Positions 44,172 through 45,076 of a stretch of DNA of 64,000 nucleotides are shown here, in pieces (position 1 is the first letter of the stretch; the number at the start of each line of letters is the position of its first letter). A program made the position numbers and the translations under genes. The notes beneath the pieces were generated by a model. It was given only the letters and a program-made list of their open reading frames with translations, searched no databases and was not told the origin of the DNA. This stretch comes from Lawsonia intracellularis PHE/MN1-00. Its GTDB lineage: Bacteria; Desulfobacterota; Desulfovibrionia; Desulfovibrionales; Desulfovibrionaceae. The stretch lies in the NCBI RefSeq assembly GCF_000055945.1, contig NC_008011.1, forward strand, positions 739,501-803,500. The letters run 5' to 3'.

Positions 44172-44228
44172 GAAAAAACGTAACTATATAAATCTATACT
44201 AAACTAATATAGATTTATATAGTTACGT
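44172..44228 (-). terminator. Long intrinsic terminator of the flgM operon
   Basis: Two perfect 21-nt arms (44178-44198 and 44208-44228) separated by 9 nt. On the minus strand the stem is followed by CGUUUUUUC. It lies 45 nt past the flgM stop. The long uninterrupted stem with U run makes this an efficient terminator despite its low GC content. Confidence 0.88.
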
Positions 44229-44272: not shown

Positions 44273-44590
44273 TTAACCAAAAATTTCTGACTCTAAACCT
44301 AACATGTTTTGGGCAATATCCTTACTGTTTATCTTATAATTACCTGACTCTATAGCAGCCCTAATTGAAGCTACCTTTTCTTCTCTTATATCTATAGAGT
44401 GCATAGCTTCTCTATACACTTCTACATATAGTTTGCCTTTAGGGGAAAGAATTACTTTATCTTCTTGAGGATAAGGTTCCCCTGACGTAGCATCTGTTTT
44501 CCCTCTAGCTACTTTATTTGATTTAGTTATCAAGTCACCCTGACTCGTAACCATTCCATATGGATTATTATTTACATCTTTGATATCCAT
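44273..44590 (-). CDS. flgM: Anti-sigma-28 factor FlgM
   Basis: Small regulator of 105 residues that binds FliA (sigma-28) until it is exported through the completed flagellar hook. The first 40 residues are polar and disordered, as needed for export. The C-terminal sigma-binding half contains DKVILSPKGKLYVEV and the conserved helix REEKVASIRAAIESGNYKIN followed by SKDIAQNMLG, matching the FlgM pattern Rxxkvxxlkxai..GxYxvds..iA..mL. AGAGG precedes the ATG. It is the second gene after a protein of unknown function, downstream of a FliA-type promoter, giving the expected negative-feedback loop. Confidence 0.9.
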   Translation of the reverse strand: MDIKDVNNNPYGMVTSQGDLITKSNKVARGKTDATSGEPYPQEDKVILSPKGKLYVEVYREAMHSIDIREEKVASIRAAIESGNYKINSKDIAQNMLGLESEIFG

Positions 44591-44617
44591 ATTTTTCCTC
44601 TTAGGAAAACATTAGTG

Positions 44618-45028
44618 CTACAACATAGTAGTATTTACTTTATCCAAGATCATTGTCCAAGCAAGACATAATATCTCAGTTTGTAATTTTGAGCCTACTT
44701 TTTCCCATTCATTATTAACTTTCACCAATATAACAACTTCAGGACTCTCTGGGGGATATTGAAAACAAATTTTATTATTAAACTTCTCTATTAATTCTTT
44801 TTGCACATCTTGTACCACAGATGAATTATAACCAGTGATAAGAAAATTTTTAAAAAACTCTTTAGCTACTAGTCTAACTAATATTTTCCTTTTTATTATC
44901 TTAGATAAACTAAGCGGCTCTTCTATTAAGCTAATTGCTTGACGATAACGTTCTAACCTTCGTGCTGTTACTAGTTGTTGTTCATACTTTTTTAACATAT
45001 TACGTGTCTGAAAAGAAATTATTTTCAT
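44618..45028 (-). CDS. Unknown cytoplasmic protein, first gene of the flgM operon
   Basis: Protein of 136 residues without signal peptide or membrane segment. It begins MKIISFQTRNMLKKYEQQLV and is mostly helical and basic in the first half. It has a short alpha/beta-like C-terminal part (KICFQYPPESPEVVILVKVN, then a Trp-containing helix). I recall similar proteins, with the patterns KYEQQLVTARRL, SSVVQDVQKEL and YPP, next to flgM in Desulfovibrio; no function is established. AAGGAG lies 7 nt before the ATG. Position suggests a regulatory or chaperone role in flagellar assembly (an FlgN-like job is a guess). Confidence 0.75.
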   Translation of the reverse strand: MKIISFQTRNMLKKYEQQLVTARRLERYRQAISLIEEPLSLSKIIKRKILVRLVAKEFFKNFLITGYNSSVVQDVQKELIEKFNNKICFQYPPESPEVVILVKVNNEWEKVGSKLQTEILCLAWTMILDKVNTTML

Positions 45029-45049
45029 AACAATTCTCCTTCATTCACT

Positions 45050-45076
45050 CCATCGGTAAAATAAGAAGAAACTTTA
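45050..45076 (-). promoter_or_regulatory. FliA (sigma-28) promoter of the flgM operon
   Basis: On the minus strand TAAAGTTT (45076-45069), an 11-nt spacer, and ACCGATGG (45057-45050). The consensus for sigma-28 is TAAAGTTT-N11-GCCGATAA, so the -35 is perfect, the spacing exact and the -10 matches 5 of 8, including the CCGAT core. The predicted start is near 45043, leaving a very short leader before AAGGAG. Confidence 0.85.

What the first reader, a model, noticed from the sequence alone, without database searches (positions are those of the whole stretch)
44273..45076. Near-consensus sigma-28 promoter driving an unknown gene and flgM
TAAAGTTT-N11-ACCGATGG lies just upstream of the two-gene operon. 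FlgM would be made under FliA control, a feedback loop, with a co-regulated protein of unknown function. The -10 lies so close that the leader is almost absent.
Basis: partly seen in the sequence, partly recalled or inferred. Interest (0 to 1): 0.6.

Follow-up and report, generated by a model that had tools for sequence, protein, structure and literature searches.

The report
FliA-driven flagellar anti-sigma operon, Lawsonia
A pig gut pathogen (Lawsonia intracellularis) switches on the brake of its late flagellar genes (FlgM) from a promoter read by the very factor that the brake inhibits, together with a small flagellar partner protein; the arrangement is an ordinary feedback loop, conserved in nearly all flagellated relatives, and only the partner protein's job is really unknown.

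Summary
Confirmed, and largely ordinary. The window lies in Lawsonia intracellularis. TAAAGTTT-N11-ACCGATGG is at 45076-45050 (minus strand). On its own it is not 'near-consensus': the -35 matches E. coli 8/8, the -10 only 5/8, and such sites are at chance level genome-wide. Footprinting settles it: 70 of 71 relatives' DVU0524-flgM operons carry TAAAG-N14-16-[CAT]CGA close upstream (shuffles: mean 0.5), and flgM follows in 71/71. Relatives' matrix ranks the site first in the window. fliA is present. The 'unknown gene' is a named family (NF041863, DVU0524 family FlgM-associated protein); the operon ends at a strong terminator. The short leader (about 15 nt, complete Shine-Dalgarno) is family-wide. 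So: a FliA-FlgM negative feedback operon, as E. coli flgMN, with DVU0524 instead of FlgN. DVU0524 and FlgM are lost together, with FlhA, in non-flagellated relatives. New here: the DVU0524 C-terminal domain resembles FlaG, the filament-length limiter that binds FlhA: distant homologues hit Pfam FlaG just below cut-off, profile comparison 90%, solved FlaG ranks second by fold with insignificant E. I therefore guess that DVU0524 acts at the export gate (35-40%).

The parts
45069..45076 (-). -35 element of the sigma-28 promoter, TAAAGTTT
   Evidence: TAAAG at this place in relatives
45050..45057 (-). -10 element of the sigma-28 promoter, ACCGATGG
   Evidence: CCGATG variants also in relatives L104, L117, L128
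45029..45043 (-). predicted leader, about 15 nt, with Shine-Dalgarno AAGGAG at 45041-45036 (start site inferred)
   Evidence: sequence; spacing conserved in relatives
44618..45028 (-). DVU0524 family FlgM-associated protein, 136 aa; helical N-terminal half, alpha-beta-beta-beta-alpha C-terminal half (residues 66-136)
   Evidence: NF041863 59.8 bits, cut-off 40; AlphaFold models
44273..44590 (-). flgM, anti-sigma-28 factor, 105 aa
   Evidence: PF04316 59.9 bits, cut-off 25; TIGR03824 54.2 bits, cut-off 40.75
44172..44228 (-). intrinsic terminator after flgM: 24-bp stem, 3-nt loop, then a run of T
   Evidence: (z-score -6.55)

Best explanation
45076-44172 (minus strand) is a two-gene transcription unit of L. 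intracellularis read by RNA polymerase with FliA (sigma-28). Free FliA makes more FlgM, FlgM binds FliA and holds it back, and export of FlgM through the finished hook-basal body releases FliA: a negative feedback on late flagellar genes. The co-transcribed DVU0524 protein is a dedicated partner of this step. My best guess for it, much less certain (35-40%), is a cytoplasmic FlaG-like factor that acts at the flagellar export gate (FlhA). Shown: promoter conservation, gene order, terminator, presence of fliA, joint loss with FlgM and FlhA. Inferred: the actual start site, FliA dependence, FlgM activity, everything about what DVU0524 does.
For: fliA intact in the genome. Sigma-28 element in 70/71 upstream regions against mean 0.5 (maximum 3) in shuffles, 0 on the other strand and 0 inside the gene; 34/34 named loci (these overlap with the first set); also in distant phylum members L150-L152. 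A matrix from relatives without Lawsonia ranks the site first in the window, 14.9 bits against 9.7 for the next. flgM follows in 71/71. Where DVU0524 is not upstream of flgM (genus g39: L235, L238), the sigma-28 promoter sits directly before flgM. Other Lawsonia sites of this kind lie before fliD and a SprA-related gene. Terminator after flgM. No sigma-70-like site on the minus strand between 45029 and 45420. E. coli flgMN has the same kind of FliA site, TAAAGATTACCCGTCCCTTGCCGATAAA (PMC4183435). Co-loss: 17 of 20 DVU0524-less genomes also lack FlgM, and the seven examined for the export gate keep only an injectisome-type copy or none. FlaG-like C-terminal domain.
Against: The -10 box is weak in Lawsonia (GATGG for GATAA), and single-genome statistics do not single it out. 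One of 10 shuffled windows scored above the real site with the relatives' matrix. The matrix was built from sites picked by pattern, so its TAAAG and CGA columns are conserved by construction. FlaG likeness: no gathering-level hit, the Desulfovibrionaceae alignment alone shows nothing (probability 1.3%), and fold E-values are 0.28-0.52.
Confidence: 0.88

Rival explanations
1. The site is a chance match, or a decayed relic in a host-restricted genome, and the operon is read from a sigma-70 or sigma-54 promoter.
For: Weak -10 box; counts with the E. coli motif are at chance.
Against: Position, spacing and orientation match the conserved element in relatives; no good sigma-70 match and no GG-N10-GC site within 300 nt upstream.
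Confidence: 0.06
2. DVU0524 is an export chaperone, standing in for FlgN (which shares an operon with flgM in enterobacteria), and binds FlgM or hook-filament junction proteins.
For: Same operon partner position; long N-terminal helices in the model; strict co-occurrence with flgM.
Against: No Pfam match to FlgN; mixed alpha/beta C-terminal domain rather than all-helical; gene order is partner-flgM, not flgM-partner.
Confidence: 0.25
3. DVU0524 is a cytoplasmic regulator that modulates the FliA-FlgM complex or binds nucleic acid through its very basic, conserved N-terminal helix (MLRTYGKQL..ARRLAR).
For: Arg/Lys-rich conserved N-terminal segment; fixed pairing with the anti-sigma gene.
Against: No DNA-binding family found; N-terminal helix is low-confidence in the model.
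Confidence: 0.2

Closest known systems
E. coli flgMN operon with its FliA (class 3) promoter
   Same: flgM is under the sigma factor it inhibits, giving negative feedback; FliA site TAAAGATTACCCGTCCCTTGCCGATAAA (PMC4183435)
   Different: Partner is DVU0524, encoded before flgM, not FlgN after it. I found no second (class 2) promoter in Lawsonia, whereas E. coli also reads flgM from flgAMN.
DVU0524 family FlgM-associated protein, NCBIfam NF041863
   Same: Member by score (59.8 bits, cut-off 40) and by position next to flgM
   Different: Lawsonia's copy is divergent (about 26-35% identity to relatives) and the operon has left the csrA-fliW-flgL neighbourhood that relatives keep.
FlaG (PF03646), filament-length limiter that binds FlhA and antagonises FliS in Campylobacter jejuni (PMC12445086)
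   Same: C-terminal alpha-beta-beta-beta-alpha domain; distant homologues align to FlaG profile positions 41-95
   Different: Below Pfam's cut-off; extra N-terminal helical half; several relatives encode a separate true FlaG as well.

Membership tests
sigma-28 (FliA) promoter | TAAAG-type -35 and CCGAT-type -10 at the right spacing | tested here: met
   -35 8/8, -10 5/8 of the E. coli octamers; TAAAG-N15-CCGA spacing as in 31 of 70 relatives
sigma-28 (FliA) promoter | conserved upstream of orthologous operons | tested here: met
   70/71, 34/34 named loci
sigma-28 (FliA) promoter | cognate sigma factor in the genome | tested here: met
   G000:C1:644498-645139, 237.5 bits over cut-off 189.6
sigma-28 (FliA) promoter | transcription start at the site and FliA dependence | not testable with these tools
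   needs 5' end mapping or a fliA mutant
FlgM anti-sigma-28 factor | PF04316 / TIGR03824 above curated cut-off | tested here: met
   59.9 and 54.2 bits
FlgM anti-sigma-28 factor | binds FliA and is exported | not testable with these tools
   biochemistry needed
DVU0524 family (NF041863) | score above cut-off | tested here: met
   59.8 bits, cut-off 40
DVU0524 family (NF041863) | gene next to flgM | tested here: met
   27 nt upstream of flgM; flgM downstream in 71/71
FlaG (PF03646) | score above Pfam gathering cut-off | tested here: not met
   best distant homologue 21.1 bits, cut-off 23.8; window protein no hit
FlaG (PF03646) | same fold | tested here: inconclusive
   HpFlaG 6jsx rank 2 with the C-terminal domain, but E 0.28 and TM-score 0.37
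FlaG (PF03646) | homology by profile-profile comparison | tested here: inconclusive
   five phylum-level homologues against FlaG: probability 89.9%; mixed alignment 32.9% (column-shuffled FlaG against this one at most 0.4%); family alignment alone 1.3%
FlgN chaperone (flgMN operon) | FlgN family match | tested here: not met
   no Pfam family at E up to 1

The most novel reading that the evidence does not exclude
DVU0524 is a FlaG-derived protein with an added N-terminal helical module that acts at the export gate FlhA, so that one sigma-28 operon makes both the brake on late-gene transcription (FlgM) and a brake on, or adaptor for, late-substrate export, coupling the two across Desulfobacterota.
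Probability: 0.25. Interest if true: 0.55.

Novelty: new member of a known kind. Interest (0 to 1): 0.35.

Why it matters
FlgM feedback on FliA is textbook in enterobacteria but, as far as my searches of the paper library went, not described for Desulfobacterota. The conserved promoter shows that the loop is old there and is kept in an obligate intracellular pathogen whose sampled sister species have lost the flagellum. It also gives a partner protein, found in 40 of 44 sampled genera, its first testable functional hypothesis.

Tried and rejected
The E. coli consensus scan of the whole genome was at chance and could not decide. A single-protein search of named genomes with the Lawsonia sequence found nothing, and the broad alignment had no conserved stretch; a close sub-alignment worked. 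The solved-structure sequence search gave only chance hits. No Rfam match in the region. No paper in the library holds 'DVU0524'. I rejected a FlgN identity (no Pfam match, wrong fold type). My first labelling of the downstream gene at L088 as a chemoreceptor was wrong on reading further: it has RsbU-like phosphatase sequence.

Full report
WHERE IT IS. The window is G000:C1:739501-803500 of a genome of 1,719,014 bases in four contigs with a chromosome of 1,457,619. That size and layout, and an AT-rich desulfovibrioid gene content, are those of Lawsonia intracellularis PHE/MN1-00; the species name is from my own knowledge of that genome, the tool names no organism.

THE OBSERVATION. The motif is present exactly as written, minus strand 45076-45050, upstream of two same-strand frames. 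The second frame is FlgM by two curated models. The first is not wholly unknown: it is NF041863, 'DVU0524 family FlgM-associated protein', 59.8 bits against a cut-off of 40. fliA is present and uninterrupted.

IS IT CHANCE? Judged from this genome alone it could be: 1.26 such sites are expected in the window, and genome-wide counts (31) do not exceed the reversed control (38). Comparative evidence decides. The family occurs in 165 of 199 genomes and 40 of 44 genera sampled. I took 70 relatives and Lawsonia: TAAAG-N14-16-[CAT]CGA occurs within 150 nt upstream in 70 of 71, against a mean of 0.5 and a maximum of 3 in 100 rounds of dinucleotide shuffling, none on the opposite strand and none in the first 150 nt of the gene. 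The exception (L119) has CCGT in place of CCGA. A matrix built without Lawsonia puts this site first in the window at 14.9 bits, next 9.7, though 1 of 10 shuffled windows beat it and the core columns are conserved by the way the sites were chosen. Relatives with the same GATG variant exist (L104, L117, L128), and E. coli FliA sites include it too (trg, GCCGATGAC; PMC4183435).

OPERON ANATOMY. flgM starts 27 nt after DVU0524 and follows it in all 71 cases. A 24-bp hairpin with a T-run lies after flgM (z -6.55). The start codon is 21 nt beyond the -10 octamer, so the leader is about 15 nt and holds a full Shine-Dalgarno; the -10-to-start distance in relatives is similar, mostly 24-28 nt from the CGA (24 in Lawsonia). 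The short leader is thus a family trait. Relatives keep the pair convergent with fliW, csrA and flgL (31, 30 and 27 of 34 loci); none of these three was found in the Lawsonia window.

REGULON. The best Lawsonia site of this type is before a SprA-related gene; others are before fliD, a 133-aa protein and further small genes. Flagellin genes in the family split into sigma-54 and sigma-28 types, and one Lawsonia flagellin has a sigma-54-like site, TGGTATATCCATTGCA.

CO-OCCURRENCE. Of 20 genomes without a detectable DVU0524, 17 lack FlgM. Of the other three, one has a diverged DVU0524 before flgM that the model missed (L239), one has flgM near a contig edge (L232), and one (L235, genus g39) has the sigma-28 promoter directly before flgM; L238 of the same genus shows the same arrangement. 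Of seven such genomes searched for the export gate (FHIPEP family), six carry a single match each, 71-78% identical to Lawsonia's second copy (taken to be the injectisome SctV) and only about 36% to the copy near fliA (taken to be FlhA); the seventh, G006, has none. So DVU0524, FlgM and FlhA are lost together. The three other genus members sampled are among these non-flagellated genomes.

WHAT DVU0524 MAY DO. Homologues reach across the phylum (25 of 148 genomes); all five distant loci I read have flgM next, and three of them (L150-L152) have a clear sigma-28 promoter. The AlphaFold model has two N-terminal helices (the first low-confidence) and a confident alpha-beta-beta-beta-alpha C-terminal domain. 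Distant homologues L150 and L151 hit Pfam FlaG at E 9e-4 and 3.6e-4, just below the gathering cut-off, in exactly that domain. Profile comparison of the five distant homologues with ten FlaG proteins gives 89.9% probability; a mixed alignment gives 32.9%, against at most 0.4% for 20 column-shuffled FlaG alignments; the Desulfovibrionaceae alignment alone gives nothing. Helicobacter FlaG (6jsx) is rank 16 with the whole model and rank 2 with the C-terminal domain, but with E 0.52 and 0.28. I treat this as a good lead, not membership. FlaG in Campylobacter binds FlhA, competes with FliS and limits filament length (PMC12445086), hence the guess that DVU0524 acts at the export gate.

VERDICT. The promoter and the feedback loop are real by comparative evidence and of a known kind. 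The open question is the function of DVU0524.

Noticed in passing
G000:C1:701970-702380 (L141) and G000:C1:894211-894621 (L140): Two Lawsonia flagellin genes: one has a sigma-54-like site (TGGTATATCCATTGCA) 66 nt upstream of the match, the other neither a clear sigma-54 nor sigma-28 site. Flagellin may escape the FliA-FlgM checkpoint.
   Followed up: partly
G006, G047, G073 (same genus as the window's genome): All three sampled sister genomes lack FlgM; two keep the injectisome-type export gate and one lacks any, so L. intracellularis is the flagellated one of those sampled.
   Followed up: partly
L004, G000:C1:1323749-1323775: The best sigma-28-like site found in the genome (TAAAGTTTCATAACACTCTCCCGATAA) precedes a SprA-related (PF12118) putative metalloprotease gene.
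   Followed up: partly
L070 (G000:C1:123530), L081 (G000:C1:1043410), L030 (G000:C1:1291852): Sigma-28-like intergenic sites before a 133-aa protein, a 168-aa frame whose N-terminus looks like a signal peptide and a short open frame (62 aa read), none assigned above a Pfam cut-off: candidate new late flagellar genes.
   Followed up: no
L088, G000:C1:1411041-1411067: A weaker site (CTAATATATTTTGCACTCCTGTCGATA) precedes a 490-aa protein whose sequence reads like a membrane sensor with an RsbU-like phosphatase end.
   Followed up: no
L235 and L238 (genus g39): flgM has its sigma-28 promoter directly upstream with no DVU0524 in between, so the promoter goes with flgM even where the partner is not there.
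   Followed up: partly
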